From positions 62,001 to 126,000 of the forward strand of contig NZ_AZEY01000029.1 in NCBI RefSeq assembly GCF_001434255.1: a stretch of DNA of 64,000 nucleotides. Reading direction: 5' to 3'. This document shows, piece after piece, positions 2,708 to 50,885 of this stretch. Numbering within the stretch: position 1 is the stretch's first letter; every line of letters starts with the position of its first letter. The notes beneath the pieces are model-generated. The model worked only from the letters and a program-made list of their open reading frames with translations, ran no database searches and was not told the origin of the DNA. This DNA is from Lentilactobacillus diolivorans DSM 14421 (GTDB lineage Bacteria > Bacillota > Bacilli > Lactobacillales > Lactobacillaceae). The translations under genes were made by a program, and so were the position numbers.

Positions 2708-2821
2708 GTGCGAAAACCCGCAGCTTCCGGCCATATAAACCCTCCAAGCCAGCATCCCCGAAACAGGGATGCTGGCTTGGAGGGTTTATATTCTGGAGGC
2801 TAAACGCGGGTTTTCACACTC
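2708..2821 (-). repeat. Bulged-hairpin repeat, copy A
   Basis: Read on the minus strand, the outer arm is 2819-2806, followed by the unpaired GTTT (2805-2802), the AGCCTCC stem, unpaired AGA (2794-2792), a 26-nt inner arm starting ATATAAAC, and a 7-nt loop. The return arm carries GGCC (2732-2729) opposite AGA. The hairpin starts 2 nt after the TGA stop of the GH3 gene (2824-2822), in the same orientation. There is one U.G pair in the outer stem and no T-run follows, so it is not a typical Rho-independent terminator. Confidence 0.85.
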
Positions 2822-5041
2822 TCACGAATTGCTCAACTCCAAAAATCTTTGAATCTGCTCCGGGGTCACGCCCACCGTCGTTGCTGCCCGCAACGGCATG
2901 TTTAGAAACATCTTGGCGGTTGCCGGATCACTTGTCATCACCTTATCGAATATTTCGCCGATTCCTGATTCATCCAAAGCGGATTTTAATTCAGGGTGAT
3001 CAACCAAGACATTAATATAAGTGTTCATATTAACAATCAGTGGTTGGACAGGGGTCCAATCCAGCGAAATATCTTGATGGAGTCGGATATTCTGACTACT
3101 GGAGCCAATCAAAATTTCATATGAACCATTATCAACCTGCCAATTTTCGGTTGCTGGATTAAACCAACTAAATGCCCGCAATCCAAGTGTGAATGACAGT
3201 TGGGCTTCTTCGCCTGGATTAAGCCCAACCTTGCCGAAATCAACCAATTGTTTAGCTGCCATTTCAACGTGACTGGCATGATTGCCAACATAGATCTGGA
3301 CGGTTTCTTCGCCCTGACGCTGCCCGGTGTTCCTGACCTTTAGGGAAACTAAGACTTGTTTGTCTTCAACACTAACCGTTAAGTTATGATAATCAAAATT
3401 AGTATAACTAAGCCCGAAACCAAACGGAAATTGAACCGGCAATTGTTTTTTATCGTAGTAGCGATAGCCCACAAAGCCGCCCTCACGATAATTTTCAATT
3501 TTGGGATCGGCATTGAAGGTGAGGTAACTTGGCGTATCTTCTAGTCGTTGTGGAAAACTTTCTGCTAGTTTGCCGGATGGCGTTACTTTGCCACTTAAGA
3601 TATCCCAAGTCGCTTCGCCAACCGCCTCGCCAGCTAAGTACGTTTCCAGGATTCCAGCAACTTGATGGACCCATGGCATTAACAAAACAGAGCCGTTTTG
3701 AAGAATTACTACGGTATTGGGATTGACCTTTGCTACTGCCTCGATCAACTGGTTTTGAGATTGAGGCAGGTTAAGGTTATCTTTGTCAAAGCCTTCAGAT
3801 TCTTGTTGTTCAGGGTACCCGGCAAATAACAGGACTTTATCAGCCCGCTTGGCAATGGTTACTGCCTGATCAATTAATTGATGATCGACTTCATCTTGGC
3901 TGAGTGAATATCCTGCTGCATAGGGTGTTTCGGGTCGGGCTTGGTCAATGGCTTGGAAAGGAGTGACAAGGTGATGTGCATTGACATGTGAGCTGCCACT
4001 TCCTTGATAGCGTGGCTTTTTGGCAAGTTCACCAATGACCGCGATTGAATCGACGGCACTAATTGGTAAAATATCATGATCGTTTTTCATAAGAACTATG
4101 CTCTTGGCCGCCAACTTTCTCGCAAATTGGTGTTGCGCATCCATATCGTATTTTTGCGGATCCCCTGATTGTTGTTGCCAATGGTCAATCATTGCCAGAA
4201 CTCGGCTCACGGCTCGATCGAGAGTCGTTTCGGATAATTGTTTTTTCTTGACGGCAGTGACAATTTCGTCAGTTGACAGATCACCCTTGCCGGGCATTTC
4301 CAGATCCAGTCCAGCTTTGATTGCGGCCGTGTGATCGGCAACGGCGCCCCAGTCTGACATCACGAGCCCCTTAAATCCCCATTCGTTTCGAAGAATATCG
4401 GTGAGTAATCTGTGATTTTGTGAGTTTAGTGTGCCATTAATTTGATTGTAGGAACACATAATTGTTGCGGGATGAGCGTTTTTGACAACCTTTTCAAATG
4501 CAGATAAATAGAGTTCTCGTAATGTTCGTTCGTCGATATTGGAAGACATAGTGAACCGTTCGTTTTCCCGATTGTTGGCAGCGAAATGTTTAACACTAAC
4601 GCCGACACCCTCATTTTGAACACCATTAACGTAGGCAGTGGCTAGTTCGCCCGTTAAATAGGGATCTTCTGAGAAATATTCGAAATTTCGACCAGCTAAC
4701 GGACTGCGTTTTAAATTAATGCCGGGTCCAAGTAACACGCCGACGCGCTCTGCTTGAGCGGCTTTACCGAGATAATGACCAAGTTGGTTCATCTCCTGCC
4801 GGTCAAATGAACAGGCGGTTAACGCTGATGCCGGGAAGCAAACAGCTTCAATACTTTCTTTTAATCCCAAACCGCTCATAGAAGCATCCTGTTTCCGTAA
4901 ACCTGAGGGACCGTCCGACATCATGAGTGGTGAAAGATTTAATCGGTCAATCGTTGCGGTATACCAAAAGTCTTTGCCAGAAACGAGAGCAGCTTTTTCT
5001 TCGAGCGTTAATTGGTTAATCAGTTGTGGATCAATTGCCAT
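2822..5041 (-). CDS. GH3 family beta-glycosidase (beta-glucosidase/beta-xylosidase)
   Basis: This 739-residue cytoplasmic enzyme (no signal peptide) shows the GH3 layout. A TIM-barrel-like domain holds KHFAANNRE (about 151-159) and the nucleophile motif MSDWG (Asp about 230). The alpha/beta sandwich domain contains GSGSSHVN and GYPEQQESEGFD. A fibronectin-III-like region lies near 560-660, followed by an extra ~75-residue C-terminal segment. The ATG at 5041 is preferred because GAAAGG lies 11 nt upstream; a GTG at 5053 is possible. It starts 24 nt after the ROK repressor stop, so it is in its operon. It probably hydrolyses beta-linked gluco- or xylo-oligosaccharides delivered by the symporter; GH3 specificity cannot be read from sequence alone. 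Confidence 0.93.
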   Translation of the reverse strand: MAIDPQLINQLTLEEKAALVSGKDFWYTATIDRLNLSPLMMSDGPSGLRKQDASMSGLGLKESIEAVCFPASALTACSFDRQEMNQLGHYLGKAAQAERVGVLLGPGINLKRSPLAGRNFEYFSEDPYLTGELATAYVNGVQNEGVGVSVKHFAANNRENERFTMSSNIDERTLRELYLSAFEKVVKNAHPATIMCSYNQINGTLNSQNHRLLTDILRNEWGFKGLVMSDWGAVADHTAAIKAGLDLEMPGKGDLSTDEIVTAVKKKQLSETTLDRAVSRVLAMIDHWQQQSGDPQKYDMDAQHQFARKLAAKSIVLMKNDHDILPISAVDSIAVIGELAKKPRYQGSGSSHVNAHHLVTPFQAIDQARPETPYAAGYSLSQDEVDHQLIDQAVTIAKRADKVLLFAGYPEQQESEGFDKDNLNLPQSQNQLIEAVAKVNPNTVVILQNGSVLLMPWVHQVAGILETYLAGEAVGEATWDILSGKVTPSGKLAESFPQRLEDTPSYLTFNADPKIENYREGGFVGYRYYDKKQLPVQFPFGFGLSYTNFDYHNLTVSVEDKQVLVSLKVRNTGQRQGEETVQIYVGNHASHVEMAAKQLVDFGKVGLNPGEEAQLSFTLGLRAFSWFNPATENWQVDNGSYEILIGSSSQNIRLHQDISLDWTPVQPLIVNMNTYINVLVDHPELKSALDESGIGEIFDKVMTSDPATAKMFLNMPLRAATTVGVTPEQIQRFLELSNS

Positions 5042-5064
5042 AATGAACGACACCTTTCTTGTGA

Positions 5065-6243
5065 TTAGTGATGAAAAATTAAGCGGGTTCCTTCCATATC
5101 TAAAACCCGATGGATCGCCATTGAGGCGCCACCAAGTAATGTCGCATATTTAACGTCCTTTGACATGACCAGTGGTGGGACTAGTGGCATAAAGCCTAAT
5201 TTCATTTGAACGTTTTTGAGAATTTCAGGGAGCTCTTCAATCAATGGTGAATTAAAAAAGATCATTTGTGGATCATAGGCGGCAATTAAGTCGGCAGTGA
5301 CGATTGCAAGGTGGTAACAGAATTGCTCAATAATTTCAGTTACTTGAGGATCGTTTAAATTAAAATCACGAAGTAATTCATTCAACTGATAATGTTTCTT
5401 ATTCTTTAATTTAGCGATTTTAGTCAGAATCTTGGTTTGTGACCACTCTGAATCAAAGTTAGGTAACTGAGCAAGCCGTCGTTTTTTCTGACCATTGTCT
5501 TGAATCATAATCCGGCCAATTTCACCGGCTTGGCCGTAATTTCCAGTGTATAGGTGGGTATTAATGATAATTCCGGCACCAATTCCTTCATGGATACTGA
5601 TTGAAACAATATTTTCCAATTCTTGCTTACTAAAGTCCTGTTCAAAAATTGCGGAGAGGTTAGCTTCATTTTCAACTATTACGGGAACGTCGTATTTTTT
5701 CTTGAAATGACCAATAAGATCATATTCTTCAAAGTCAATAAACGGTGAAGTAACGACTTCACCGTTATAGACCACACCAAAGATTGCGATTGAGATGGCC
5801 CGCAAGCCATTAACCGTATCAAAATTTGGTAGTTGACTAATTTGATCTTCCATCATTGCAACAATGTTTGTGATTGATTGATTATCAATGTTTCGGGTGT
5901 TGTATTCCAACGTTCGGCCGTCGAGTTTGGCGGCTAACATTTCCAGTTCATGACCGGAAATACTAAAGTTGACCACGTAGCCATAAGCCGCGTTATACTC
6001 AACCAACTCAGGCTTACGACCACTCGTACCGGTTGATTTATCTTCCCCTAAACTTTTGACGAGTTTTCGATCAATGAATGTGCCAACGATGTCTGAGACC
6101 GTCATTTTATTTAGGCCTAATAATTTAGAAATATCATTTCTTGAAATCGGGCCGTTATTGATAATTGCCTGGAGGACAGACCGTTCATTGAAATCCCGCA
6201 TCACGTCTTTATTAATAATCACTTTTTCTCTCTCACTTTTCAT
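5065..6243 (-). CDS. xylR: ROK-family xylose/xyloside repressor (XylR-like)
   Basis: The 392-residue protein has an N-terminal winged helix (about 15-75: FNERSVLQAIINNGPISRNDISKLLGLNKMTVSDIV in short segments) followed by a ROK sugar-kinase-like domain (EGIGAGIIIN, then GQAGEIGRIMI). In Lactobacillus pentosus the repressor of the xylPQ genes is of this class. ROK proteins normally carry a CxCGxxGCxE zinc motif after the GHxxI/L position; here no cysteine cluster is present (the segment reads GRIMIQDNGQKKRRL). Zinc binding therefore appears lost, as in some XylR-type members. It is between the symporter and the GH3 gene in one minus-strand operon. Confidence 0.88.
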   Translation of the reverse strand: MKSEREKVIINKDVMRDFNERSVLQAIINNGPISRNDISKLLGLNKMTVSDIVGTFIDRKLVKSLGEDKSTGTSGRKPELVEYNAAYGYVVNFSISGHELEMLAAKLDGRTLEYNTRNIDNQSITNIVAMMEDQISQLPNFDTVNGLRAISIAIFGVVYNGEVVTSPFIDFEEYDLIGHFKKKYDVPVIVENEANLSAIFEQDFSKQELENIVSISIHEGIGAGIIINTHLYTGNYGQAGEIGRIMIQDNGQKKRRLAQLPNFDSEWSQTKILTKIAKLKNKKHYQLNELLRDFNLNDPQVTEIIEQFCYHLAIVTADLIAAYDPQMIFFNSPLIEELPEILKNVQMKLGFMPLVPPLVMSKDVKYATLLGGASMAIHRVLDMEGTRLIFHH

Positions 6244-6248
6244 TGAAA

Positions 6249-7661
6249 TTAGTCATCTGCATTCTCTTTTGCGTGTTTAGCAGCCAGATCACTTTGCATT
6301 TTCTTTTCGATACCATCAACATGATAGAACAATAAGGCGATGGCGGAAAGACCAAATCCAAGTAACGGCACCCAAATATAGTTTAATTCAATACCGTGCA
6401 GTGCAGCGGCTGACTGGTTTTGGTTGGCAACATAATGAGTGATTGAAAGAATCCATCCGGTAATGACACCGCCGATTCCCATTCCCAACTTAGCACTGAA
6501 GCTTGAGAATGAAGTCACGATTCCTTCAGCTCGAACACCATTTTTCCATTCACCATAATCAACAGCATCGGCTAGCATGACGGCGATCAAGCCAGATACA
6601 TAACCAGTTCCAAGGTAACCAACAATTGTTGCAAAAATAATCATTGGGACACTTAAGTGGGTTGCACCAACGCTTAACAATAATTGGCCGGCGATTGCCA
6701 TGACCATGCCCAAAAGCATTGTATTTCGTTTACCAATTAGTTTGGAAGTTAATGGGGTTAACACAACGGCAATCAATGAGACAAATTGTAGGCTTAGAAC
6801 AAATGAAGCTAAACCAGCGTTATGCATATTGTATTTAAAGAAGTAAACGGTGACTTGAGAACGTGTTTGCATCCCCAACCAATAGATAAAGTTAATGAAG
6901 ATAATAATTGCCCAAGGCCAGTTCCGTCGAAGCGCTTTTAGCGACTCTTTGATCGGAATTGATTGACGGGAACTCTTAGTCTGAACACGTTCCTTTGTAT
7001 TTTTAAAGACAATTCCGAAAATAATCACAACGACGATTCCGACAATTAATGCCCAGATAAACCAGCCGTGGGCACTGGTCGTTGAGCCACCACCGAAGAA
7101 CGCGACCATGCCTAATGTAATTCCGGTAATAATGGCTGCACCGGCAGTTCCCATAAACTGACGAATGGTTGAAAGTGTCACTCGTTCTTGGGGGTTGCTT
7201 GTTAATGATGGCAAAATCGAAGTAATTGGAATATTAACAGCTGAATACAAGACATCAACCCCAATATAGGTGACGTAAGCCCAAACCAACTTTCCGGTCA
7301 GGCTTAGATTGGGAGTGGTAAAGACCAAAACACAGAAGACTGCAAATGGAATTGAGAACCATAACCAATAAGGCCGGCTCTTTCCCCACTTCGTATGGGT
7401 ATGATCGATCATAATTCCCCAGAAGGGACCATCAAAAGCGTCAACAATTCGGGCAACCAAGAATAAGGTTCCAACGGCGGCCGCACTGATACCAAATGTA
7501 TCGGTATAAAAAATCATCAAGTAAGTTCCGACCATTTGAAATGACAGGTTGCACGCGAAGTCACTTAAACTATAGGCAAACCGTTCGTTCCAAGGGACCA
7601 TATTCTTTAAGATTGTGGCCGGCTTGGCAATTGCTTTTTTCTCTGAAACAGGTTCATGCAT
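6249..7661 (-). CDS. xylP: GPH-family isoprimeverose/xyloside symporter (XylP-like)
   Basis: This 470-residue, twelve-segment membrane protein has the GPH signatures: NERFAYSLSDFACNLSFQ at the N-terminus, FDGPFWGIMIDHTHTKWGKSRPY near residue 80, and a conserved YLGTGYVSGLIAVMLADAVDYG region near 370. It ends in a cytoplasmic polar tail. The ATG at 7661 is chosen over the GTG at 7670 because AAGAGGTG lies at the right distance. It heads an operon symporter-ROK-GH3 (5-bp gap to the repressor) and is divergent from the alpha-xylosidase. XylP/XylQ pairs import and split isoprimeverose (alpha-xylosyl-1,6-glucose) in L. pentosus, and the same role is inferred here. Confidence 0.88.
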   Translation of the reverse strand: MHEPVSEKKAIAKPATILKNMVPWNERFAYSLSDFACNLSFQMVGTYLMIFYTDTFGISAAAVGTLFLVARIVDAFDGPFWGIMIDHTHTKWGKSRPYWLWFSIPFAVFCVLVFTTPNLSLTGKLVWAYVTYIGVDVLYSAVNIPITSILPSLTSNPQERVTLSTIRQFMGTAGAAIITGITLGMVAFFGGGSTTSAHGWFIWALIVGIVVVIIFGIVFKNTKERVQTKSSRQSIPIKESLKALRRNWPWAIIIFINFIYWLGMQTRSQVTVYFFKYNMHNAGLASFVLSLQFVSLIAVVLTPLTSKLIGKRNTMLLGMVMAIAGQLLLSVGATHLSVPMIIFATIVGYLGTGYVSGLIAVMLADAVDYGEWKNGVRAEGIVTSFSSFSAKLGMGIGGVITGWILSITHYVANQNQSAAALHGIELNYIWVPLLGFGLSAIALLFYHVDGIEKKMQSDLAAKHAKENADD

Positions 7662-7714
7662 AGTGAACACCTCTTAAATAGTTTTTGACGTTAATAAATT
7701 CAATTTACAAACAA

Positions 7715-7743
7715 ATTGTATTGTAACCGGTTTCAAATGTCAA
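7715..7743 (-). promoter_or_regulatory. Promoter of symporter operon with overlapping cre
   Basis: On the minus strand TTGACA (7743-7738) and TACAAT (7720-7715) are 17 bp apart. The spacer holds TTGAAACCGGTTACA, which fits the cre consensus WTGNAANCGNWNNCW at every position. Carbon catabolite repression by CcpA is expected. Confidence 0.8.
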
Positions 7744-7828
7744 CAAAAAATTAACGGTTACTTTTATATTATGAATACATTCTATATAAGCCAGCTAAAC
7801 AGAGAGGACTAAGTTGATCATTAATTTA

Positions 7829-7866
7829 TTGAAAGCGTTGACAATCTTTTGAATCATAGTTACACT
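7829..7866 (+). promoter_or_regulatory. Promoter of alpha-xylosidase with overlapping cre
   Basis: TTGACA at 7838-7843 and TACACT at 7861-7866 are 17 bp apart. TTGAAAGCGTTGACA (7829-7843), a perfect cre, covers the -35 hexamer. CcpA bound here would block polymerase. Confidence 0.8.
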
Positions 7867-7920
7867 ATCGGTGACAATTAATAAATTCAACTTTCAAAAA
7901 CAAAGTAGAGGTGTTTCTTA

Positions 7921-10203: not shown

Positions 10204-10220
10204 AATTCAGTAATAAATAG

Positions 10221-12410: not shown

Positions 12411-12483
12411 AAAAAAGATCCCGTGAAACCAGTATTTGTAGGTTATTCATTATCTACAAATACTGGTTTCACGGGATCTTTTT
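12411..12483. terminator. Bidirectional terminator between M42 and ade genes
   Basis: A perfect 24-26-bp stem (A6-GATCCCGTGAAACC and its complement) with A-run and T-run on opposite sides serves both converging transcripts. Confidence 0.9.
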
Positions 12484-34577: not shown

Positions 34578-34733
34578 TCATGAAATTAAGTATGGTTTGA
34601 CTCAAAGATCGAGGCAAAAATATCTTGCCTTGAAGGACTGAGTCTAAGCATGCAGGGGAGAGTGCTCCGGTCATATAGGTTCCTTAGCTGATCGTTTCAA
34701 AATCAGGAATGCTGCGGCAACCTAGTCAAAACG

Positions 34734-34846
34734 TGCAAAGGAGCCGCAACTCCCGGCCATATAAGCCACTTGATCCCATATTCCCAAACCTGGAATATGG
34801 GAACGAGTGGCTTATATTCTGGGAGTTAACCGCGTCTCTTTGCACT
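34734..34846 (-). repeat. Bulged-hairpin repeat, copy B (reverse orientation)
   Basis: On the minus strand: outer arm GTGCAAAGAGACGC, bulge GGTT, AACTCCC stem, AGA (34821-34819) opposite GGCC (34759-34756), and inner arm ATATAAGCCACT... It has two mismatches in the inner stem. Unlike the other copies it points away from its upstream + strand gene (150 bp off). Its outer 40 nt nearly match copy C, with which it flanks the oppA gene as an inverted pair. Confidence 0.85.
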
Positions 34847-35011
34847 CTCCACAAATTTCAATCAACTTAATTGAACCCGTCGCGATATTATGGGAAAATG
34901 ATTGTCGGACTTAATCCTAAGCAATTATTAGCGTAATCAAAAGGGTTAGCATCACCTGATTATTCAAGCAAATGATGTGATTAAGAAATTATTTAGAAGG
35001 GTGATTTTTAA

Positions 35012-36664
35012 ATGTTCAATAAGCAGGGAAAATTTGGCCGCTCGTTTAAACGAGTGACGGCACTATTACTCGTAACAGCCGTGACATTAGTTTTGGCTGC
35101 CTGTGGTAAATCATCAAATTCCGGGAAAACACAGCAAGTGCTGAAATTAAGTACACCATCTGAATTGGCAACACTGGACAATTCTAAAGCTTCGGAATCT
35201 GTTAGCTTAACGCAACTCTATCATACTGGTGAGGGGCTCTATCGGTTGGGAAAAAACTCGAAGATTGAGAATGCGCTGGCAACTAGTACCAAGGTTTCTA
35301 AAGATGGTCTGCAATATACGTTTAAATTACGAACCAACGATAAATGGAGCAATGGCAAACCGGTTACTGCTAAAGACTTTGTCTATTCCTGGCGACGGAC
35401 GGCGGATCCAAAGACAGCTTCCGAATATTCATATTTATTTGAAGGCATCAAGAATTTTGACGCAATTCAAAAGAAACAGCTTTCACCAGATAAATTAGGA
35501 GTAAAAGCAATTGGCAACAACAAGCTGGTTGTGACACTCAGCAAGCCGGTTCCATATTTTAAACTCTTGGTTGCTTTCCCAGTCTTTTTCCCAGAACAAG
35601 CATCAGTTGTTAATAAGTATGGTAGTGACTATGGCACTTCCAGCAGCAAAACAAGTTATAATGGGCCGTTTAAACTTGTTGGTTGGAACGGGACCAACGA
35701 AACGTGGAAATTGGTTAAGAATCCGAATTATTGGGATAAGAAAAATGTTCATCTCAAACAAATTGATCTGAATGTCGTTAAAAGCCCAGCAACTGGTTTG
35801 AACTTGTATCAGCAAGGTAAACTGGATGCCGTTACGCTGAGTGGCACTCAAGTTGCCAACTACCGCAAAAATAAAGATTTCAAGAATTTCGTCGGTGGGT
35901 CAATGATTTACCTGCAGCTTAATCAAAAACGGGTTAAGGCATTACGAAATCTAAAGGTCCGCCAAGCCTTATCGCAAATTGTCGATAAGCAGGCGTTGGC
36001 AACCAAAGTCTTAAGGGATGGCTCAACTAAACCGTTGGGATTTGTCTCACAAAACCTATTCCGAAATCCGAAGACTAAGGCTGACTTTGCAAAAGACGCT
36101 TATGTTAAATCCGGGGTTGCTTATGATCCAACAAATGCTAAAAAACTCTGGCAGCAGGGGATGAAAGCCGTTGGTCAGAACAAATTGCATTTGACAATTC
36201 TGAGTGATGATACTGATCAGACAAGATCGGCCGCGGAATACTTACAAAGTCAGTTTGAAAAGTTACCCGGCTTAAGCATCAGTATTCAAACGGTACCGAA
36301 ACTGACCCGGATGTCACGATCTGAGAAGGGAAACTTTGACGTTGTTATCTCAACGTGGGGAGCTGATTTTGCCGATCCAATTAACTTCCTGAGCTTAATG
36401 ACAAAAGGTAATTCGTCCAATAACGGTGGTTTTGTGAATACAAAGTACGATCAGTTAATTGCAAAATCTGGTTCAACGGATGCCAACGACCCACAAAAAC
36501 GATACAACGATATGGTAAGTGCTGAAAAAGTATTAATGCAGCAGCAGGGCCTTATTCCGCTGTATCAACCGGCAACAGCTCAATTGTGGAAATCAGATGT
36601 CAAAGGATATGTTTGGAACCCAGCTGGAATGAGCCAGGGGTGGAAGGATATTTCGATTAAGTGA
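35012..36664 (+). CDS. oppA: Oligopeptide ABC transporter substrate-binding lipoprotein (OppA)
   Basis: The 550-residue protein has a lipoprotein signal ending LAACG (Cys at about residue 31), then an SBP_bac_5 fold: NKWSNGKPVTAKDFVYSWRRT (typical R-x-x-x-K-W-S-N-G motif), YNGPFKLVGWNG, then the C-terminal lobe. It binds extracellular oligopeptides and passes them to an OppBCDF permease. No permease genes are adjacent, so it must serve a transporter encoded elsewhere. The gene is flanked by repeat copies B and C in inverted orientation, and copy C starts 6 nt after its stop codon. The ribosome site is AGAAGGG. Confidence 0.93.
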   Translation: MFNKQGKFGRSFKRVTALLLVTAVTLVLAACGKSSNSGKTQQVLKLSTPSELATLDNSKASESVSLTQLYHTGEGLYRLGKNSKIENALATSTKVSKDGLQYTFKLRTNDKWSNGKPVTAKDFVYSWRRTADPKTASEYSYLFEGIKNFDAIQKKQLSPDKLGVKAIGNNKLVVTLSKPVPYFKLLVAFPVFFPEQASVVNKYGSDYGTSSSKTSYNGPFKLVGWNGTNETWKLVKNPNYWDKKNVHLKQIDLNVVKSPATGLNLYQQGKLDAVTLSGTQVANYRKNKDFKNFVGGSMIYLQLNQKRVKALRNLKVRQALSQIVDKQALATKVLRDGSTKPLGFVSQNLFRNPKTKADFAKDAYVKSGVAYDPTNAKKLWQQGMKAVGQNKLHLTILSDDTDQTRSAAEYLQSQFEKLPGLSISIQTVPKLTRMSRSEKGNFDVVISTWGADFADPINFLSLMTKGNSSNNGGFVNTKYDQLIAKSGSTDANDPQKRYNDMVSAEKVLMQQQGLIPLYQPATAQLWKSDVKGYVWNPAGMSQGWKDISIK

Positions 36665-36670
36665 GTGCGA

Positions 36671-36783
36671 GTGCAAAGAGACGCGGTTAGCTCCCAGAAT
36701 ATAAGCCACTAAAGCCCAGATTCCCGGTTTTGGAATCTGGGCTTTAGTGGCTTATATGGCCGGGAGCTGCGTCTGCTTTGCAC
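36671..36783 (+). repeat. Bulged-hairpin repeat, copy C
   Basis: Outer arm GTGCAAAGAGACGC, bulge GGTT, stem AGCTCCC, AGA opposite GGCC, 26-nt inner arm starting ATATAAGCCACT with its full complement, and a 7-nt loop (CGGTTTT). It begins 6 nt after the oppA TGA (36662-36664), in the gene's orientation. A tail CACGTTATAACTAAGAAGCC follows. No T-run. Confidence 0.88.
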
Positions 36784-37020
36784 GTTATAACTAAGAAGCC
36801 GACAACATTTCTTAAAAATTTGTGCTTGGAAGTTTTACCCGGTAGTCCAGATAATATCAGCATGTTGTAGATAATCAATTAAGATTTGGAACTCATCCGA
36901 ATCAATTTATATTTTCGACATCACACCTTGACATCGATCAATTAGAGGTATAAATTAGATAACATTAAATATTGATGAGTAAATGACAAAACACTTTGAA
37001 AGGAAAAGTAGATTTGCCTA

Positions 37021-37274
37021 TTTTTTAAAGAGAGCTTTCGGCTGGTGTGAGAAGGTAGAAATAGTGAATCGAAAATCATCCTTGAGTGGCAGGGACGACC
37101 CATTTAGTCCCTGATGGCAGCCAGCCATTATGATGGACGTGTATCGAAAGGGAATGTGACTCATTCTTTCTTTCCGTACATTGAGGTTTAGTCGATTTTG
37201 ATTAGACAATTAATAGGTGGTACCGCGGAGACGCCCTATGTAAGTGACAGAACTTGCATAGGGCGTCTTTTTTG
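37021..37274 (+). ncRNA. T-box leader controlling pepI-oppA, likely tRNA-Ile
   Basis: The leader has the stem-I AGAGAG plus GGCTGGTGTGAG apical element, a specifier region GAAA-ATC-A-TCC-TTGAGT, and the antiterminator T-box AATAGGTGGTACCGCGG (37212-37228). A terminator hairpin follows (37230-37240 with 37257-37267) and T6. Aligned on the family pattern GAA(A)-NNN-A-YCY, the specifier is AUC (37075-37077), Ile. Uncharged tRNA would stabilise the antiterminator and turn on the peptidase and peptide-binding protein. The specifier call is from pattern alone. Confidence 0.9.
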
Positions 37275-37311: not shown

Positions 37312-38211
37312 ATGCAGCAGGGAAGTAAAATTTTAACATTGAATAATGGATTTCATTTGTTTACCAGAACAGTTGGGGAGGGTGACGTTAAGCTTCTATG
37401 TGTTCATGGTGGCCCTGGGAGTAATCACGAAGAATTTGAAAATTTTGGCGAAAAATTGGCTAAGTATCACGTTCAAGTCTCGATGTATGATCAACTGGGC
37501 TCGTTTTATTCCGATCAACCTGATTTTAGTGATCCGGCAAACCAAAAATATTTAACGTTGGACTATTACTTGAGTGAATTAGAGGAAGTTCGGCAAAAAC
37601 TTGGATTAGAGAACTTTTACTTGTTGGGACATTCTTGGGGTGGCCTACTTGCTCAAGAATATGCGTTGAAATATGGTCAGCATCTAAAAGGCGTGATTAT
37701 CATGAGCATGATTGATAATATCGCTGAATATACTGTTCATATCAATCAATTACGTGACCAAACATTTTCTCCATTTGAGGTGGCTTATATGAAGACGGTC
37801 GAACACGATGAGCGCTTTGATGATCCTAAGTATCAGGAATTGGTTGCAAAATTATATAAGCTTTATGTTAATCGTCATCCTGAAAGAATGCCACGTCACT
37901 TAGTCGAGACAATGGCTACACCGGTTTACAATCATTTCCAAGGAAATAACGAGTTCGTGATGGTCGGGACGTTAAATGGCTGGGACCGTCGAGCCGATAT
38001 TCATAATATTACGAATCCAACGTTATTGACGTTTGGTGATCACGACACAATGCCACTGGCGACTGCTAAACGGATGAATGAGGAGATCCCATCGTCGCGG
38101 TTGGTGTTAACACCGGATGGCGGTCATTGTCATAGTGTTGATAACCCGAAAGCATTTTTTAAAACATTAGGCGGATTTATTGAAGACGTTGAAACGGGAA
38201 ACTTCAAGTGA
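37312..38211 (+). CDS. pepI: Proline iminopeptidase / alpha-beta hydrolase (S33)
   Basis: The 299-residue enzyme has the S33 family pattern: HGGPGSNHEEF (oxyanion region, about 32-42), the nucleophile Ser108 in GHSWGG, and a C-terminal GDHD and GGHC that supply Asp and His. PepI releases N-terminal proline and related residues from short peptides, completing peptide breakdown. It is cytoplasmic. It follows a T-box leader and precedes oppA by 52 bp, so peptide hydrolysis and binding respond together to amino-acid starvation. The ATG follows AAAAAGGAG. A proline-specific S33 call is likely, but related aminopeptidases look similar. Confidence 0.9.
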   Translation: MQQGSKILTLNNGFHLFTRTVGEGDVKLLCVHGGPGSNHEEFENFGEKLAKYHVQVSMYDQLGSFYSDQPDFSDPANQKYLTLDYYLSELEEVRQKLGLENFYLLGHSWGGLLAQEYALKYGQHLKGVIIMSMIDNIAEYTVHINQLRDQTFSPFEVAYMKTVEHDERFDDPKYQELVAKLYKLYVNRHPERMPRHLVETMATPVYNHFQGNNEFVMVGTLNGWDRRADIHNITNPTLLTFGDHDTMPLATAKRMNEEIPSSRLVLTPDGGHCHSVDNPKAFFKTLGGFIEDVETGNFK

Positions 38212-41987: not shown

Positions 41988-41988
41988 C

Positions 41989-43345: not shown

Positions 43346-43399
43346 GCTGTTTTTCCTCTTGACACGAATGGAATTTGGCCGTAAGATTTTGACAATTAA

Positions 43400-43667
43400 A
43401 AAGTTATTAGATGTTGATGAGAAGAGAGCTGACGATGGGCTACCCAAAGAGAACGCTGCTTGCTGAGATGGCGTGGTAGACAGTTGGTGAGAATGAGCTC
43501 GGAGTCGTGTCGTCGCTGGATAATCAGTTGATGGCCGGTTTGGAAACCGATATTTTCCCGAATACATGTGATATGTATTTGAGGTAGCTGATTTTCGCTA
43601 TAAAAATGGGTGGTACCACGGCAAAGCTCGTCCCTGGACAAAGTTAATTTGTTCAGGGATTTTTTTG
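43400..43667 (+). ncRNA. T-box leader upstream of YbaK-type gene
   Basis: The T-box AAAATGGGTGGTACCACGG (43602-43620) is followed by terminator arms TCCCTGGACAAA (43631-43642) and TTTGTTCAGGGA (43648-43659) and T7. Stem I begins at AGAGAGCTGACG. The best-aligned specifier (GAGA-ATG-AGCTC-GGAGT) reads AUG at 43493-43495, which would be Met, but the fit is weaker than in the leader at 37021, and GAG is the alternative. A T-box before a lone editing-domain gene is unusual. Confidence 0.85.
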
Positions 43668-43687
43668 TGGATTCGGAGGCGATCAAT

Positions 43688-44155
43688 TTGAGTACAGTCC
43701 AAATGAAAAATCTGTTACATCACTATGGATTAAGTGACAGGTATTTTAAGTTGTCAGAAACGGGTGCAACGGTTGAAGAGGCAGCAGAAACAATTCATGT
43801 GTCACCAGACGCGATTGCAAAATCACTGGTTTTAACTGTTAACCAACAACCGATTGTCGTTGTGTTGAGTGGGACGGCAAGATTAGGCAATCATCAATTT
43901 AAAGAGGAATTTGAAGTCCGACCGAGATTACTTGCGCCGGATAAGGTGAAGGAAGTAACGGGCTTTCCAGTTGGTGGTGTGAATCCAATCGGACTGGATA
44001 ATGCGTTACCGGTATATTTAGATAATTCATTGCGGGATATCCCGTGGCTCTACCCGGCGGCGGGAGATCCGTTTCACGCCCTAAAGCTAAGTTTGGATGA
44101 GTTGATTGAGCTGAGTAGGCCGGTAAGGTGGGTAAAGGTAAGCAGAGTGGGCTAG
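43688..44155 (+). CDS. ybaK: YbaK/EbsC-family aminoacyl-tRNA deacylase
   Basis: The 155-residue protein is a single YbaK/ProX-type editing domain with the features DAIAKSLVLTVNQQPIVVVL, FPVGGVNPIGLDNALPVYLDNSL and PAAGDPFHALKLS. Such domains hydrolyse mischarged aminoacyl-tRNAs in trans, often Cys- or Ala-tRNA(Pro). The start is TTG at 43688 with GGAGG 8 nt upstream; the longer frame back to 43610 lies inside the T-box leader and cannot be the real start. The last codons and TAG stop (44147-44155) lie inside repeat copy D. Confidence 0.9.
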   Translation: MSTVQMKNLLHHYGLSDRYFKLSETGATVEEAAETIHVSPDAIAKSLVLTVNQQPIVVVLSGTARLGNHQFKEEFEVRPRLLAPDKVKEVTGFPVGGVNPIGLDNALPVYLDNSLRDIPWLYPAAGDPFHALKLSLDELIELSRPVRWVKVSRVG

Positions 44156-44258
44156 CAAGCGTTTAGATTCCAGAATATAAGCCCTTAAATCCCCTATTCC
44201 TGATTTGGGAATAGGGGATTTAAGGGCTTATATGGCCGGAATCTGCTTGCTAGGCCAC
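44147..44258 (+). repeat. Bulged-hairpin repeat, copy D, overlapping a stop codon
   Basis: Outer arm GTGGGCTAGCAAGC, bulge GTTT, stem AGATTCC, AGA opposite GGCC, inner arm ATATAAGCCCTT... with a perfect complement. The upstream gene's last codons GTG-GGC-TAG form part of the outer arm. The tail CACGTTTTAGCTAGGTAGC follows. No T-run. Confidence 0.88.
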
Positions 44259-44317
44259 GTTTTAGCTAGGTAGCTAAAAAATAATCTCAAAGTTGAACTA
44301 TCGGGTTATTTGCTTAC

Positions 44318-44410
44318 ATGGCCGGGAACTGCTTGCTAGACCACGTTTCGGCTAGGTAGCCAGTAAGTGTCTCGAACTTCCTAATTTTGAAATATGGGGT
44401 TATATAGCCG
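44318..44410 (+). repeat. Partial second copy of the repeat (right arm and tail)
   Basis: ATGGCCGGGAACTGCTTGCT and ACCACGTTTCGGCTAGGTAGCC repeat the right arm and tail of copy D with few changes. CTAATTTTGAAATATGGGG and TTATATAGCCG follow. The left arm is missing, which points to a partial duplication or decay. Confidence 0.7.
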
Positions 44411-44493
44411 CAATTTATTTTTCTCAACCTGCAAACTAAAGATAATTTGTAGTCAAAATTAAAAAATAATGCCCGACATCAATGAATTCAACT

Positions 44494-44937: not shown

Positions 44938-45019
44938 AAGCCACATCCTGACATAATAAAAATTAGTGTTACGTTATCTTGTATGACCATTGTACTTCAA
45001 GTTGAAACACTATGGGATG

Positions 45020-45090
45020 ATAAAAACGCAAAACAAACGACCCTCAAAGTTAGATTGTTGGCTAACCTCGGGAGTCGTTTATCTTTGTGG
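45020..45090 (-). terminator. Possible terminator of the nuclease gene
   Basis: On the minus strand AAACGACTCCC pairs loosely with GAGGGTCGTTT across ~20 nt, ending in a broken T-run (GTTTTGCGTTTTT). Confidence 0.5.
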
Positions 45091-45093
45091 CGA

Positions 45094-45975: not shown

Positions 45976-46033
45976 GTTATTTCACCCTCAAAATAATGAT
46001 GATTGCAAAATTAAAAGAAAGATGGTGTCAGTC

Positions 46034-46279
46034 TTATTTTTCCAAATGGCATAAGCGGTAGTGATGCGCTCTAGCCCAGTGGACAGTTACATGGCGGAGA
46101 CGGCCAGCATTTGATAGTCCTCGGCAATTTCTACTATAGTGGTAACGTTTGCCGTGGTTGGGTGCAATCCAGACATACCCGGTTCGGGCAGATGCGGATT
46201 GTGGTGGCAATGTTGCGTATGCGCCACCCATAGTAAAGGTAGCGACAAGGACCAACGATACTTTCTTTAACTTGTTCAT
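46034..46279 (-). CDS. Small secreted Cys-containing protein, companion of the nuclease
   Basis: The 81-residue protein has a signal peptide (MNKLKKVSLVLVATFTMGG, cleavage near SASA) and a ~45-residue domain VWIAPNHGKRYHYSRNCRG ... RLCHLEK. The two cysteines (NC and LC) and several His suggest a small metal-binding or disulfide fold like those fused to DNA-entry nucleases in Firmicutes. The adjacent nuclease has the same module with both Cys lost. GGGGGAAT precedes the ATG. Role unknown. Confidence 0.75.
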   Translation of the reverse strand: MNKLKKVSLVLVATFTMGGAYATLPPQSASARTGYVWIAPNHGKRYHYSRNCRGLSNAGRLRHVTVHWARAHHYRLCHLEK

Positions 46280-46541
46280 GATGAAATTCCCCCTAAAATA
46301 AGTGTTTGAATCTCCCTTGACTGGTTACAAATGAAAATTGGCGATTCGATAGTGTTGTGATAATGATCACAATTAAATTTTAGCACTTATTTTCGTTAAA
46401 AAACATAGTGAAATACGTATTATGACACTGATTAATGCCACTCATTAGTTAATTAAATAGGCCTTTTTAATTAACTTTTGTAATGGAAGCGTTATAATTA
46501 TGGTGTTCCGTGAGTATAAATATATTAGGGGAGGGGTTTAT

Positions 46542-48719
46542 ATGAAGTTTGATCTTAAGAGGTCATTGTTTCTTTCAATGGCTGCTTTAGGATTTGTCGC
46601 TGTTGCTGGTACATATACTGCAACAAATGCCAGCGCAAAGACTTACGCAAAAGTAACATCAAACCGTAAGATGTCGACAGATCCGACAACTAGGAATATT
46701 ACCTTTAATGGTAGTAATGCGCTTTATACCAAAGCTGGCACACTTCGAGGAGCTAGAATAGTTGCTCGTAAGGGAACTTTGAGTGCTTTAGCTAATTCGA
46801 AATCATCATCGGATAATTTCCGTGTCTATCGGATAGCGACGACAAACAGAAAATCTGTTTACTACAAGATCGTTTCGTTTGACCGTCAATATCGCGGCTG
46901 GATTTACGGTGGTAAAACTCAAGGCGCATTTAATGGCGGTATTCAGCAGTTCGCCACGTTCCAGAGTAGTAATTTAACTGATGCCCAAAAGAATTCAACT
47001 TATAAGTTTGCGAATACCGGGGTCGCCAATGATGGCAAGACGGTAACATACGTTCAACCAGCTTGGACGCAATATAAAGTTGGTCGGGCAATCATTGATT
47101 CATCACCTTATGCCAACGCAACCTTTAAGATTGACCAGGTTGGTACCCGAACTCGTGAGGGCGATCAATGGGTTCACATTATCGCAACTGATAATAGCAA
47201 CTCACAAGCTAATGGTTGGATTCTCTTCAGTGGATTAACACAAGCTCAAACACCAATTGCTGATTATGCAATCCGAATTAATTTAGTCGATCCAAGCAAT
47301 AATAACGCGGTTGTTAAGTCATTTGATTGGCAGAAGTCCGGTGCTACTAAGGGAACACCACTTGGCAACCAAAACAATAACAATTGGTCAATTAATTCAA
47401 ATGATCAACGTTCAATTCAATCATCAATTCGAAACGCACTAAATGGAACCGGCTTTAACTTGGATACATTAACCAGCAGCCAGTTAACCGCTTTAGCCCA
47501 AACCAAGTTCGGCGATTCAATTAATTTGAATGTTAATAAGGCAACCAATATTGCTGACAACGCTGTTCGAATCAATATTATGGATGGTAATGGCAACGTT
47601 GTGAAATCCCTTGATTGGAATCGAAATGGCGCAACCAAAGGAAACAATGTCGGTTCTCAAATTAATGGTAACTGGACATTGAACAATAATGATCAGCAAT
47701 CCATTCAAAATCAAATCAACAACACTTTGAGTAATTCAGGCTATTACTTGAACTTGTCGAATGATCAAGCTGCCCAAATTGCTCAAGCAACCTTTGGCGG
47801 ATCCGTTTACTTGTATGCTAACAGTAATGTGATTGCCAGCCAGGCCCTTCGAATCAATTTGTATAGTCAAAGCGGTCGTTATATTGGCTACACTGACTTT
47901 ACCCGTTCTGGTGCAACTAATGGTACCAACGTTGGTAACTACAGCAATGGCACATGGAATATTTCCGATGCTGATGCCAATACCATTTTGAATCAAATCA
48001 ATAACGTGTTGAGCGCAAATGGTTATCAAACCGTCGGTAATACGTTGACAGCTGCTCAACGGGCACAGATTGCTCAAGGTGTCTTTGGTGGTAGTATTAG
48101 TTTGACTGGTTATAATAGTCAGACACAGAACAATTACAGCACAATTGTTCCCAATACAAGTTATACAACAAATGGTAATACGTTATATAAAGCTATGCAG
48201 CAAACTACTGATTCTTATGCTAATGGGCCGATTATCTTTCCTAATGTACAAGATCCCACCCAGAACTTTAATGTAAGTGCTCAAGCAGTTTATGAAAATA
48301 CAAATAATGCGCGTACAAATTTAGTTGCATCTCTTAAAGCATCTAAAGATGGAACTTCCTTGATTTCTAATGCTCAGTTAGCTGTTATGAATAGCAAGAT
48401 ACTAAACTCTGTTAAAGATAATTATTACTACAAGAAACCTAATACAAGTTTGAGCTTTACAACTGGGCCCCAGGGAACGCCATTTAGTGGATCTCAATTG
48501 ACAAACTATATAACGGCTACAGGTTCTGACCTTGCAACACTCAATTCACCAGTATATCCTGTAATTACTCGTGATCCTGATGCTACTAAGATTACTATCG
48601 AGTGGCACCATTTTAAATATGATTACGACCAAACAAATCCACAAAATGGTACTAATGGATATCCTGTAAATGCATATTGGACGAATACAGATGTTAAGGG
48701 TGAAACTAACACTTATTAG
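46542..48719 (+). CDS. S-layer-type secreted protein 1 (three C-terminal modules)
   Basis: This 725-residue protein starts at the ATG at 46542 after a strong AGGGGAGGGG site. A signal peptide with the SLF-AALGF-VAVAG pattern is cleaved near NASAK (about residue 32). The N-terminal ~230 residues contain the family signature (SNALYTKAGTLRGAR, YRGWIYGGKT, TREGDQWVHI), matching L. brevis-type S-layer wall-binding regions. About residues 240-540 hold three modules of ~95 residues starting IAD/IAS-x-A-x-R-I-N, each with NW(T/S)-DQ-x-x-IQ-x-x-I and a closing A-x-x-x-FGGS. A C-terminal domain of unknown fold (YPV, PVNAYW) follows. Secreted, wall-bound by non-covalent contacts, probably surface protein. 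Confidence 0.87.
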   Translation: MKFDLKRSLFLSMAALGFVAVAGTYTATNASAKTYAKVTSNRKMSTDPTTRNITFNGSNALYTKAGTLRGARIVARKGTLSALANSKSSSDNFRVYRIATTNRKSVYYKIVSFDRQYRGWIYGGKTQGAFNGGIQQFATFQSSNLTDAQKNSTYKFANTGVANDGKTVTYVQPAWTQYKVGRAIIDSSPYANATFKIDQVGTRTREGDQWVHIIATDNSNSQANGWILFSGLTQAQTPIADYAIRINLVDPSNNNAVVKSFDWQKSGATKGTPLGNQNNNNWSINSNDQRSIQSSIRNALNGTGFNLDTLTSSQLTALAQTKFGDSINLNVNKATNIADNAVRINIMDGNGNVVKSLDWNRNGATKGNNVGSQINGNWTLNNNDQQSIQNQINNTLSNSGYYLNLSNDQAAQIAQATFGGSVYLYANSNVIASQALRINLYSQSGRYIGYTDFTRSGATNGTNVGNYSNGTWNISDADANTILNQINNVLSANGYQTVGNTLTAAQRAQIAQGVFGGSISLTGYNSQTQNNYSTIVPNTSYTTNGNTLYKAMQQTTDSYANGPIIFPNVQDPTQNFNVSAQAVYENTNNARTNLVASLKASKDGTSLISNAQLAVMNSKILNSVKDNYYYKKPNTSLSFTTGPQGTPFSGSQLTNYITATGSDLATLNSPVYPVITRDPDATKITIEWHHFKYDYDQTNPQNGTNGYPVNAYWTNTDVKGETNTY

Positions 48720-48760
48720 AACGCCTTCACTTTGAAAATATAATTGCACTGTTGTTTTAG

Positions 48761-48801
48761 AACTCTTTGTTCACGATTATTGTTGAACGAAGAGTTTTTT
48801 G
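48761..48801 (+). terminator. Terminator of S-layer paralogue 1
   Basis: AACTCTTTGTTCA pairs with TGAACGAAGAGTT, followed by T6. Confidence 0.85.
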
Positions 48802-48918
48802 TTTATAAAGTAAGTTTACAAATTATGAAAACGCGTGTTATGAAATGTAACATCCACTCTTTACAAAATTAAAATTAGGTTATAAACTAATGGCAATTTA
48901 ATAAAGAGGGCTAGAGAT

Positions 48919-50340
48919 ATGACAGTATTTCGGAAAAAAGACGTTTCAGAATTAATTGCTCATGCCACGCCGCTTAAACGGACACTTCGAACTTGGGACC
49001 TGACGTTTCTGGGAATTGGCGCGATTATTGGAACTGGAATCTTTGTGTTAACCGGTAAGGGTGCTTTAACAGCCGGGCCAGGACTGTCATTATCCTTCTT
49101 AATTGCTGCAGTTTGTTGCGGCTTTGCTGGTTTATGCTATGCAGAATTTGCGTCCATGGCACCAGTTGCCGGATCCGCGTATACATATTCTTACATCGCA
49201 TTCGGTGAAATCGTGGCATTTATTATTGGCTGGGATTTGATCTTGGAATATGCACTGGGAGCTGCAACGGTTTCAGTTGGCTGGTCAGGCTACTTTGTCA
49301 ATTTGTTGGCTAACTTAGGAATTCATCTTCCGGCAGCTATTACCGCGGCAGTTGGCACAACACCGGGTGTAACGAGTTATTTTAATTTACCTGCGTTCTT
49401 AATTGTGATTCTAATTACCTGGATTATTTCAATCGGAATTACTCAAACTAAGCGAGTCAATGACACTATGGTTTTGATTAAATTGACTGTCATCATCCTC
49501 TTCATTGTTTGCACTGTTTGGTATGTCCACCCGGGCAATTGGCATCCCTTTAACCCATATGGTTGGTACTCGTTTCATAACGGCACAGCTTCAGGAATTA
49601 TTCCGGCTGCATCGATCGTTTTCTTCTCGTTCATTGGGTTTGATGCCGTCTCATCCAGTGCTGAGGAGACAATTAACCCCAGTAAAACATTACCTCGTGG
49701 TATCCTGATGTCACTTCTTATCTCAACGGTCTTGTATATTACGATGACCCTTATCATGACTGGAGTAGTTAAATATAAAGTCTTTGCAAAATATTTAAAT
49801 GCGCCAATTCTAGCAGTCTTGGCTCAAACAGGTCAAACTTGGTTGTCAATCATTGTTAGTATTGGGGCAATCCTTGGGATGACCACTGTCATTTTGGTTC
49901 AATTATATGGTCAGTCACGAATCAGCTATTCCATGTCCCGAGATGGTCTTTTTCCAAAAATGTTTGGCGAAGTGAAGCCGAAGTACCAGACACCATTTAA
50001 GGGAACCTGGTTCTTTGGTATCATTACGGCACTTGCGGCGGGGCTGGTTAACTTAAATATCCTTTCAGAATTGGTGAATATCGGAACATTAACCGCTTTT
50101 ATCCTCGTGTCAGCTGGGGTTCTTTGGATGCGCCACGCTCAACCCGACTTACACCGTGGCTTCCGGGCACCAGGTGTCCCCGTTACTCCAATCGTTGCGA
50201 TCGCGTTTTGTGTCATGCTGGTTGCCGGTTTGAATTGGGAAACGTGGGTTCGATTTGTTGTTTGGTTGATTATCAGTATGTTCATTTATTTTGGCTATAG
50301 TAAACGACATTCTAAACTAGATCGGGAAGGGGAAAAGTAA
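48919..50340 (+). CDS. APC-family amino-acid permease (CAT/YfnA type)
   Basis: The 473-residue protein has about 12 helices and the APC signatures: LGIGAIIGTGIFVLTG near residue 33, GLCYAEFASMAPVAGSAYTYSY near 70-90, and the motif FIGFDAVSSSAEETINPSKTLP near 235. It is typical of cationic or broad amino-acid proton symporters. It is followed after 1 bp by a universal stress protein, so the pair is an operon. The pair separates S-layer paralogues 1 and 2. Confidence 0.92.
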   Translation: MTVFRKKDVSELIAHATPLKRTLRTWDLTFLGIGAIIGTGIFVLTGKGALTAGPGLSLSFLIAAVCCGFAGLCYAEFASMAPVAGSAYTYSYIAFGEIVAFIIGWDLILEYALGAATVSVGWSGYFVNLLANLGIHLPAAITAAVGTTPGVTSYFNLPAFLIVILITWIISIGITQTKRVNDTMVLIKLTVIILFIVCTVWYVHPGNWHPFNPYGWYSFHNGTASGIIPAASIVFFSFIGFDAVSSSAEETINPSKTLPRGILMSLLISTVLYITMTLIMTGVVKYKVFAKYLNAPILAVLAQTGQTWLSIIVSIGAILGMTTVILVQLYGQSRISYSMSRDGLFPKMFGEVKPKYQTPFKGTWFFGIITALAAGLVNLNILSELVNIGTLTAFILVSAGVLWMRHAQPDLHRGFRAPGVPVTPIVAIAFCVMLVAGLNWETWVRFVVWLIISMFIYFGYSKRHSKLDREGEK

Positions 50341-50341
50341 C

Positions 50342-50770
50342 ATGAAATACAAACGAATTTTAGTTGGTGTTGACGGTTCCCCACAAGCTGATCGGGCATT
50401 CAACGTTGGTTGTAGTTTAGCGAAGGTATTAGCTGCCAAACTGTATATTGTCTGGGTGGTTAATCGAGATCGTGGCATGGAGTCTTCATTTGGTGTAAAT
50501 GAAGACTTTTATCGGGATCAGTACGCCCAGGTTAAGGATAAATTGGCACCATATACCAAGAAAGCAGCCGACCAGGGGATTGATGCGGAAACGCAGGCAC
50601 TAGTCGGTAATGTAAAAGTCCTTTTATCAAAGAGTTTTCCGGCAGAAAATAAAATTGATTTGATTATTTTGGGCCAGACCGGAAGAAATGTGATTGGTAA
50701 GCTGTCAATTGGCTCCCATAGTACTTACGTTTTGCAGAACTCGGATGTGGATGTGTTGATAGTAAAGTAA
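50342..50770 (+). CDS. Universal stress protein UspA family
   Basis: The 142-residue protein has the Usp fold with the ATP-binding motif G-x2-G-x9-G-S visible as GQTGRNVIGKLSIGSHS and a start KRILVGVDGSPQA. The function is probably nucleotide-dependent regulation; pairing with the permease suggests control of amino-acid uptake or acid stress. It is cotranscribed with the permease. Repeat copy E begins 2 nt after its stop. Confidence 0.92.
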   Translation: MKYKRILVGVDGSPQADRAFNVGCSLAKVLAAKLYIVWVVNRDRGMESSFGVNEDFYRDQYAQVKDKLAPYTKKAADQGIDAETQALVGNVKVLLSKSFPAENKIDLIILGQTGRNVIGKLSIGSHSTYVLQNSDVDVLIVK

Positions 50771-50772
50771 GA

Positions 50773-50885
50773 GTGGCAAGACAAGCGGTTAGTCTCCAGA
50801 ATATAAGTCTCTTAAACCAATATCCCTGGGCTTGGGGATGTTGGTTTAAGAGGCTTATATGGCCGGAGACTGCTGGTCTTGCCAC
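50773..50885 (+). repeat. Bulged-hairpin repeat, copy E
   Basis: Outer arm GTGGCAAGACAAGC (one mismatch), bulge GGTT, stem AGTCTCC, AGA opposite GGCC, inner arm ATATAAGTCTCTT... The stem contains two U.G pairs. It starts 2 nt after the TAA of the usp gene (50768-50770), in its orientation. The tail is more diverged (CACATTTCAGC). A real T-run terminator lies ~200 bp further on. Confidence 0.88.

What the first reader, a model, noticed from the sequence alone, without database searches (positions are those of the whole stretch)
2708..50885. A dispersed bulged-hairpin repeat family with constant loops and changing stems
Five full copies (2708-2821, 34734-34846, 36671-36783, 44147-44258, 50773-50885) and one partial copy (44318-44410) share a plan: a ~14-bp outer stem, an unpaired GGTT/GTTT on one side only, a 7-bp stem ending TCC or CCC, an asymmetric loop AGA opposite GGCC, the collar ATATAAR/YTTATAT, a ~19-bp inner stem and a 6-7-nt loop. 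The stem sequences are largely different between copies but remain paired, while the unpaired bases are constant. That is the reverse of what simple insertion and decay of one sequence would leave, and it is the signature of selection on structure or of a template-copied palindrome. I know of no named lactobacillar element with this form.
Basis: seen in the sequence. Interest (0 to 1): 0.85.

Follow-up and report, generated by a model that had tools for sequence, protein, structure and literature searches.

The report
Mobile hairpins that end bacterial genes
Lactic acid bacteria carry a large family of mobile hairpin sequences that often sit directly after gene stop codons and whose two arms keep changing together, which makes them a natural test case for how structured gene ends spread and stay paired.

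Summary
The hairpins belong to a family with 108 strict copies in this Lentilactobacillus-type genome; a covariance model matches 19 of 24 genomes of the genus. Pairing is kept while sequence changes: 35 of 47 pairs show two-sided changes, covariation 0.667 against 0.172 shuffled. The 4-nt bulge and 3x4 internal loop stay nearly constant.

The hairpin is one end of a longer unit: hairpin, tail, often extra tandem 3' arms, then in many copies a terminator. Half of the copies start at a stop codon (50 of 99; chance about 2%). At one well-resolved site the element and its own terminator stand in place of an older terminator. In 19 L. parakefiri copies the collar-proximal stem shows 553 two-sided and 10 one-sided pairwise differences, and arm lengths change in pairs: arm-to-arm copying plus selection on the loops is my reading; stem P2 does not show it.

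The closest named relative is EFAR of Enterococcus (recalled, not read); the model weakly finds an Enterococcus-type element of the same plan. No Rfam family matches. No mobilising enzyme was found; Y1 transposases and reverse transcriptases do not track the copies. Function is inferred.

The parts
2697..2822 (-). element copy 1 (hairpin plus start of tail); its first base is the last base of the stop of a glycoside hydrolase family 3 gene (ORF 2822-5053, -)
   Evidence: covariance model 129.8 bits; ORF; Pfam
34722..34848 (-). element copy 2; no same-strand ORF of 60 aa or more ends at it
   Evidence: 119.4 bits; stop-codon scan
36668..36794 (+). element copy 3, three bases after the stop of a solute-binding protein gene (ORF 35012-36664)
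   Evidence: 127.2 bits
36671..36684 (+). copy 3: outer stem P1, 5' strand
   Evidence: fold; pair counts
36685..36688 (+). copy 3: 4-nt bulge GGTT, 5' side only
36689..36695 (+). copy 3: stem P2, 5' strand
36696..36698 (+). copy 3: AGA side of the 3x4 internal loop
36699..36724 (+). copy 3: P3 5' arm, beginning with the collar ATATAAG
   Evidence: inverted repeat I4
36725..36731 (+). copy 3: apical loop
36732..36757 (+). copy 3: P3 3' arm, ending with the collar CTTATAT
36758..36761 (+). copy 3: GGCC side of the 3x4 internal loop
36762..36783 (+). copy 3: P2 and P1 3' strands, ending CAC
44144..44269 (+). element copy 4; the ORF 43610-44155 (aminoacyl-tRNA editing domain) ends inside its first 12 bases
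   Evidence: 134.7 bits
50770..50896 (+). element copy 5; its first base is the last base of the stop of a universal stress protein gene (ORF 50342-50770)
   Evidence: 120.5 bits

Best explanation
These are members of an EFAR-like superfamily of small mobile elements that act as replaceable gene ends. The unit is a bulged hairpin (P1, 4-nt bulge, P2, 3x4 loop, long P3), a tail, sometimes a tandem array of extra 3' arms, and in many copies an intrinsic terminator. SHOWN BY SEQUENCE: copies begin at stop codons far more often than chance, recent copies share a stretch from AGAGTG to a terminator, and at one polarised site the unit stands in place of an older terminator. INFERRED: (1) an unidentified machinery copies the unit into gene ends; (2) the arms stay complementary because one arm is rewritten from the other by template switching inside the hairpin, so changes and indels arrive in pairs, at least in P1 and collar-proximal P3; (3) purifying selection, acting mainly on the folded mRNA-sense strand, removes rewrites that destroy the bulge or loop. 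The likely effect on the host is to set the 3' end, stability or termination behaviour of the upstream mRNA.
For: Covariation: 44 sequences, 97.2% of cells paired against 72.0% shuffled, 35 of 47 pairs with two-sided change, score 0.667 against 0.172 shuffled and at most 0.142 when slid. Stop codons: end of a same-strand ORF of 60 aa or more within -8 to +2 of the element start in 50 of 99 own copies, 32 of 66 strict copies elsewhere and 41 of 73 model hits (partly overlapping sets), against 2.3% for a random intergenic position and strand of the window. In 3 of 4 plasmid loci opened, the element start extrapolates to within 2 bases of the end of an annotated CDS (not 81). Unit length: at least 10 of 19 parakefiri copies share the tail and a terminator, by eye; own copies L024 and L070 align over 287 nt (87%) from 9 bases before AGAGTG into the T tract. 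Replacement: at locus A, G001 and G022 (and G013, with diverged upstream sequence) share a terminator that parakefiri lacks; parakefiri has the element with a different terminator. Templated copying: in all 19 parakefiri copies at hand P3 positions 6-16 show 553 two-sided and 10 one-sided pairwise differences, 208 of 209 cells Watson-Crick, and P1 175 and 0, while P3 17-23 shows 127 and 104 with 15 G.U in 133 cells; 154 of 160 distinct cores have arms of equal length although length runs from 25 to 29; L135 has the exact complement of its bulge in the 3' arm, so the bulge is lost. Strand: at P3 17-20 G.T wobbles outnumber A.C 45 to 1 (own) and 44 to 1 (other genomes).
Against: No mobilising enzyme is identified. 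About half of the copies do not start at a stop codon under this test; some sit after a T tract (6 of 96 own, 9 of 64 others), and copy 2 is antisense to its flanking genes. Terminators turn over between species anyway: the gene end of locus B has different ones in G001, G007 and G012 (the last two with rearranged surroundings), and S3 likewise, so only locus A is cleanly polarised. P2 of parakefiri shows more one-sided than two-sided differences (72 to 32). In 48 copies from other genomes P3 6-16 has 3.4% G.U and 1.7% A.C, so intermediates are not rare everywhere. The wobble asymmetry is weak in P1 (18 G.U to 9 A.C in 61 own copies; 6 to 6 in 38 others; 66 further copies bulged or not parsed). 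Difference counts are pairwise over 14 alleles, not independent events. No transcript data were available.
Confidence: 0.6

Rival explanations
1. Pure stepwise selection on an RNA structure: single mutations are followed by compensating ones, with no templated copying.
For: Covariation is strong, the loops are nearly constant, and P3 17-23 carries the G.U intermediates that this predicts (7.4% own, 11.9% in 48 other copies; 15 of 133 cells in parakefiri). P3 6-16 of the 48 other copies also has some (3.4% G.U, 1.7% A.C), and parakefiri P2 changes mostly on one side. Copies at one gene in Secundilactobacillus keep their structure (6 loci and 3 loci).
Against: Collar-proximal P3 has almost no intermediates in 100 own copies (G.U 1.0%, A.C 0.5%) and one in 209 cells in parakefiri, while all four Watson-Crick types occur; indels are paired.
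Confidence: 0.25
2. A DNA element whose folded single strand is the substrate of a transposase (REP/RAYT, IS200/IS605 or another HUH-type enzyme); the constant bulge and loop are the recognition marks and the RNA plays no part.
For: Constant unpaired bases on a changing stem are what such an enzyme would read; one-strand wobble asymmetry also fits one folded DNA strand. Copies are dispersed, and also found on plasmids.
Against: Y1 transposases were found in only 7 of 24 genomes of the genus and in none of G001, G005 and G008, which have 115-142 model matches. No strict target sequence upstream. Position at stop codons in sense orientation is not explained. Other HUH families were not searched.
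Confidence: 0.3
3. The unit moves through an RNA copy: the 3' UTR released between stop codon and terminator is reverse-transcribed and replaces another gene end.
For: The unit's limits, stop codon to T tract, are those of a 3' UTR RNA.
Against: No RVT_1 match in G000, G015 or G001; RVT_1 in 8 of 24 genomes of the genus. A lost or unrelated enzyme cannot be excluded.
Confidence: 0.08
4. Integron-like gene cassettes: gene plus a folded recombination site (attC-like) move together.
For: Folded site with extrahelical bases just after a stop codon.
Against: At locus A the gene is native at the same place in G001 and G022 without the element. The 69 upstream proteins scanned hit 100 Pfam families; the 25 shown include housekeeping genes and no recombinase.
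Confidence: 0.02

Closest known systems
EFAR, Enterococcus faecalis repeats (recalled: FEMS Microbiol Lett 2007; only a one-line mention seen, PMC3733652)
   Same: As recalled: palindromic miniature elements, mostly about 170 bp, made of two stem-loops, which replace stem-loop target sites. An element from another family of the order (L327, 61.8 bits) has an AGAG start, a GTTT bulge and a CGTTT tail; 58 of the 69 plasmid records that match it are Enterococcus.
   Different: Sequence identity with published EFAR was not tested. Tandem 3' arms, strong covariation and the start at the stop codon are features of the lactobacillar branch that I do not recall for EFAR.
REP elements and RAYT transposases
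   Same: High-copy palindromes; in E. coli part of the REPs lie within 15 nt of a stop codon (446 of 4,072) and such REPs are reported to stall ribosomes (passages of PMC12306157).
   Different: REPs are 20-40 bp (abstract of PMC3733652 in the listing) with a GT(A/G)G head (passages of PMC2817692); here the hairpin alone is about 113 bp, and copies do not track Y1 transposases.
MITEs such as RUP
   Same: Small, dispersed, about 108 copies, stops in all frames (passages of PMC2229807).
   Different: No target duplication seen by eye at the opened sites; replacement rather than insertion at locus A; arms covary.

Membership tests
EFAR | same folded plan: bulged hairpin plus second stem-loop (recalled) | tested here: inconclusive
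   L327 shares start, bulge and tail with the window family by eye, but its 61.8 bits lie in the range that antisense strands reach (up to 72.8 bits), and the EFAR plan is recalled
EFAR | sequence identity with the published EFAR of E. faecalis | not tested
   published sequence not available here; 58 of 69 plasmid records matching L327 are Enterococcus
EFAR | integration replaces a stem-loop target (recalled) | tested here: met
   locus A only: terminator shared by G001, G022 and G013 replaced in parakefiri
REP/RAYT | fixed GTAG-type head | tested here: not met
   no fixed head in 96 own and 64 other copies
REP/RAYT | a dedicated Y1 transposase in genomes with copies | tested here: not met
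   no Y1_Tnp match in G001, G005 and G008
simple MITE | 2-8-bp target duplications | tested here: inconclusive
   none seen by eye at loci A, B and S1-S3, but the species compared are diverged
Rfam RNA family | match above gathering score | tested here: not met
   window: only an unrelated T-box; 8 further loci: none; low-threshold hits on copy 3 only generic hairpins
intrinsic terminator | hairpin directly followed by a U run | tested here: not met
   hairpin is followed by GTTTC or similar; a separate terminator follows in many copies
integron attC cassette | gene and site move together | tested here: not met
   locus A gene native without element in G001 and G022

The most novel reading that the evidence does not exclude
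A class of transposable 3' UTRs, spread over a whole genus and beyond: the moving unit is the whole stretch from stop codon to terminator, it replaces the resident gene end, and one arm of its hairpin is regenerated from the other at or after each move, so that structure is inherited while sequence is not.
Probability: 0.35. Interest if true: 0.8.

Novelty: new variant of a known kind. Interest (0 to 1): 0.62.

Why it matters
If right, around a hundred gene neighbourhoods in one lactobacillar genome have had their 3' ends shaped by a mobile cassette, so gene ends evolve by module replacement. The two zones of one helix, one with G.U intermediates and one nearly without, offer a natural experiment that separates selection on RNA structure from template-driven compensation, a confounder for every covariation test.

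Tried and rejected
Rfam at gathering threshold on the window and on 8 loci, and at low threshold on 301 bases: no family. REP/RAYT: Y1 transposase does not track the copies. Reverse transcriptase: no RVT_1 match in G000, G015 and G001. Gene cassettes: rejected by locus A. Functional theme of upstream genes: 69 of the 70 proteins listed were scanned; 100 Pfam families, none in more than 3 members, 25 of the 100 shown. A fixed target sequence: none, only A/T-rich flanks. Literature: the listings show no paper on this family in lactobacilli; papers seen only as found passages: PMC12306157, PMC11109978, PMC2267715, PMC2229807, PMC2817692, PMC3733652. The library lacks most subscription journals.

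Dropped rows: 17 of the 60 loci, chance matches in unrelated organisms; 1 of 100 own copies without a recognisable start; 2 of 75 model hits with too little upstream sequence; 2 of 19 parakefiri copies (L145, L170, other subfamilies), restored, which brought the one G.T cell and 10 one-sided differences. The model alignment: 45 picked from 59 of equal length, minus L025 and L091, plus the 36671 copy. Match counts of the genome search include antisense matches of the same element: in G001 116 matches are 93 distinct places by my count, 61 of them at 73 bits or more.

Full report
OBSERVATION. The five hairpins exist at the stated places and fold as described. A covariance model built from 44 copies, four of the window's five among them, finds these five as its best window hits; its other five hits are their antisense strands. 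The strict core pattern has 108 matches in the 3.26-Mb genome and none when read backwards. The sixth, partial copy is something else: extra 3' arms of a tandem array.

ANATOMY. From 5' to 3': AGAGYG, outer stem P1, a 4-nt bulge on the 5' side (GGTT, GTTT, GCTT, GATT, GGGT), stem P2 of 7 bp, an internal loop of AGA against GGCC, the collar ATATAAG/CTTATAT, a P3 of 25-29 bp in nearly all distinct cores, a loop of 7 nt in 111 of 160, and a tail mostly beginning GTTTC. In wider relatives collar and loop vary; many of the folds keep an asymmetric loop there, and some have GGA/GGA or GA/GA in P1. After the first hairpin, 65 of 100 own loci and 14 of 66 others have one to four extra 3' arms, mostly 80-107 bases apart, without 5' arms. 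The 5' arm matches its own first 3' arm best (mean 0.95), its own extra units less (0.49-0.67), and those of other loci least (0.46-0.53).

COVARIATION. On 44 sequences, 97.2% of cells pair against 72.0% in shuffles; 35 of 47 pairs show two-sided changes; the score is 0.667 against 0.172 shuffled and at most 0.142 slid. The collar was fixed by the search pattern and says nothing. At P3 17-20 G.T wobbles beat A.C 45 to 1 in 100 own copies and 44 to 1 in 66 others, which points to one strand, the mRNA-sense one; P1 shows little of this.

COPYING OR SELECTION. In all 19 parakefiri copies at hand (of 29 strict matches in that genome), with 14 alleles for P3 6-16, 208 of 209 cells are Watson-Crick; 553 pairwise differences are two-sided and 10 one-sided; P1 0-6 gives 175 and 0; P3 17-23 gives 127 and 104, with 15 G.U in 133 cells; P2 gives 32 and 72, against the pattern. 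In the 17 copies of the main subfamily P3 6-16 gives 368 and 0. In 100 own copies P3 6-16 and 17-23 have 1.0% and 7.4% G.U; in 48 other copies 3.4% and 11.9%. Arm lengths are equal in 154 of 160 distinct cores. In L135 the 3' arm holds the exact complement of the bulge, so the bulge is gone, while the near-identical L153 keeps it. I read this as templated arm-to-arm copying in P1 and collar-proximal P3, filtered by selection on bulge and loop. At one gene end shared by six Secundilactobacillus loci, 88 cells differ on both sides and 12 on one, counted by position from the collar.

POSITION AND MOBILITY. The element start lies at a stop codon in 50 of 99 own copies, 32 of 66 others and 41 of 73 model hits, against 2.3% by chance. 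Plasmid annotation agrees in 3 of 4 opened loci. Others follow a T tract. Recent copies share tail and terminator. At locus A the relatives G001, G022 and G013 share a terminator that parakefiri lacks; parakefiri has the element and its own terminator instead, and homology resumes after the T tract. At locus B identity with G001 resumes at the T tract too, but terminators of that gene differ between species, so that site proves less. At site S5, G001 has two different elements in tandem where G015 has one; the outer junction and the inner one both lie at AGAG.

DISTRIBUTION. Strict pattern: 8 of 24 genomes of the genus, 22 of 397 of the family. Model: 19 of 24 of the genus; eight genomes, the window's own among them, have over 100 matches, at most 146 candidates being scored per genome. 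These counts include antisense matches: in G001 116 matches are 93 places, 61 of them at 73 bits or more. Family sample: 105 of 251 genomes in 22 of 40 genera; order sample: 22 of 198, 17 of them outside the family. Many of these are weak, and the antisense strand of an element alone scores 47-73 bits, so single weak hits may be other palindromes. Names, which stopped at 60 rows: Lentilactobacillus, Secundilactobacillus, Levilactobacillus, Paucilactobacillus. Plasmids: 25 records. Viral contigs: one match, by its sequence a chance one.

KNOWN RELATIVES. No Rfam family. L327, from another family of the order, has the same plan; 58 of the 69 plasmid records that match it are Enterococcus. I recall EFAR of E. 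faecalis as miniature elements of two stem-loops that replace stem-loop targets; I saw only a one-line mention. I therefore call this a new variant of a known kind, not a proven member.

MECHANISM. Shown: structure kept under change, position, shared unit limits, one replacement. Inferred: templated arm rewriting, RNA-level role, the unknown mobiliser. Y1 transposases and RVT_1 proteins do not track the copies.

Noticed in passing
window 36987-37241 (+): A T-box leader (Rfam RF00230, 113 bits) follows copy 3 and precedes the ORF at 37312.
   Followed up: no
window 12412-12483: A 35-nt, 94% inverted repeat with a 2-nt loop between convergent ORFs, probably a bidirectional terminator.
   Followed up: no
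L133 about 7260-7415 and 7490-7665: Two further dispersed hairpin repeats with many matches across the genus; the second is a collar variant of this family, the first has a GCATAAGT collar and may be a sister family.
   Followed up: partly
L057, L141, L156, L172, L177: One gene end with its element is nearly identical in this genome and in contigs of other genera, which points to recent horizontal transfer.
   Followed up: no
L003, L017, L027, L081, L083: Tandem 3' arms in A-B-A order: units 1 and 3 alike, unit 2 different.
   Followed up: no
L008, L009, L015, L022, L023, L053, L086: A dispersed terminator CTGGGACAAAA...TTTTGTCCCAG (allowing mismatches) follows several own copies and in L023 and L053 seems to be shared by convergent elements.
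   Followed up: partly
G001:C1: Of the 34 best model matches in G001, 26 lie on the minus strand and 8 on the plus strand; the window's own genome shows less bias (61 and 47).
   Followed up: no
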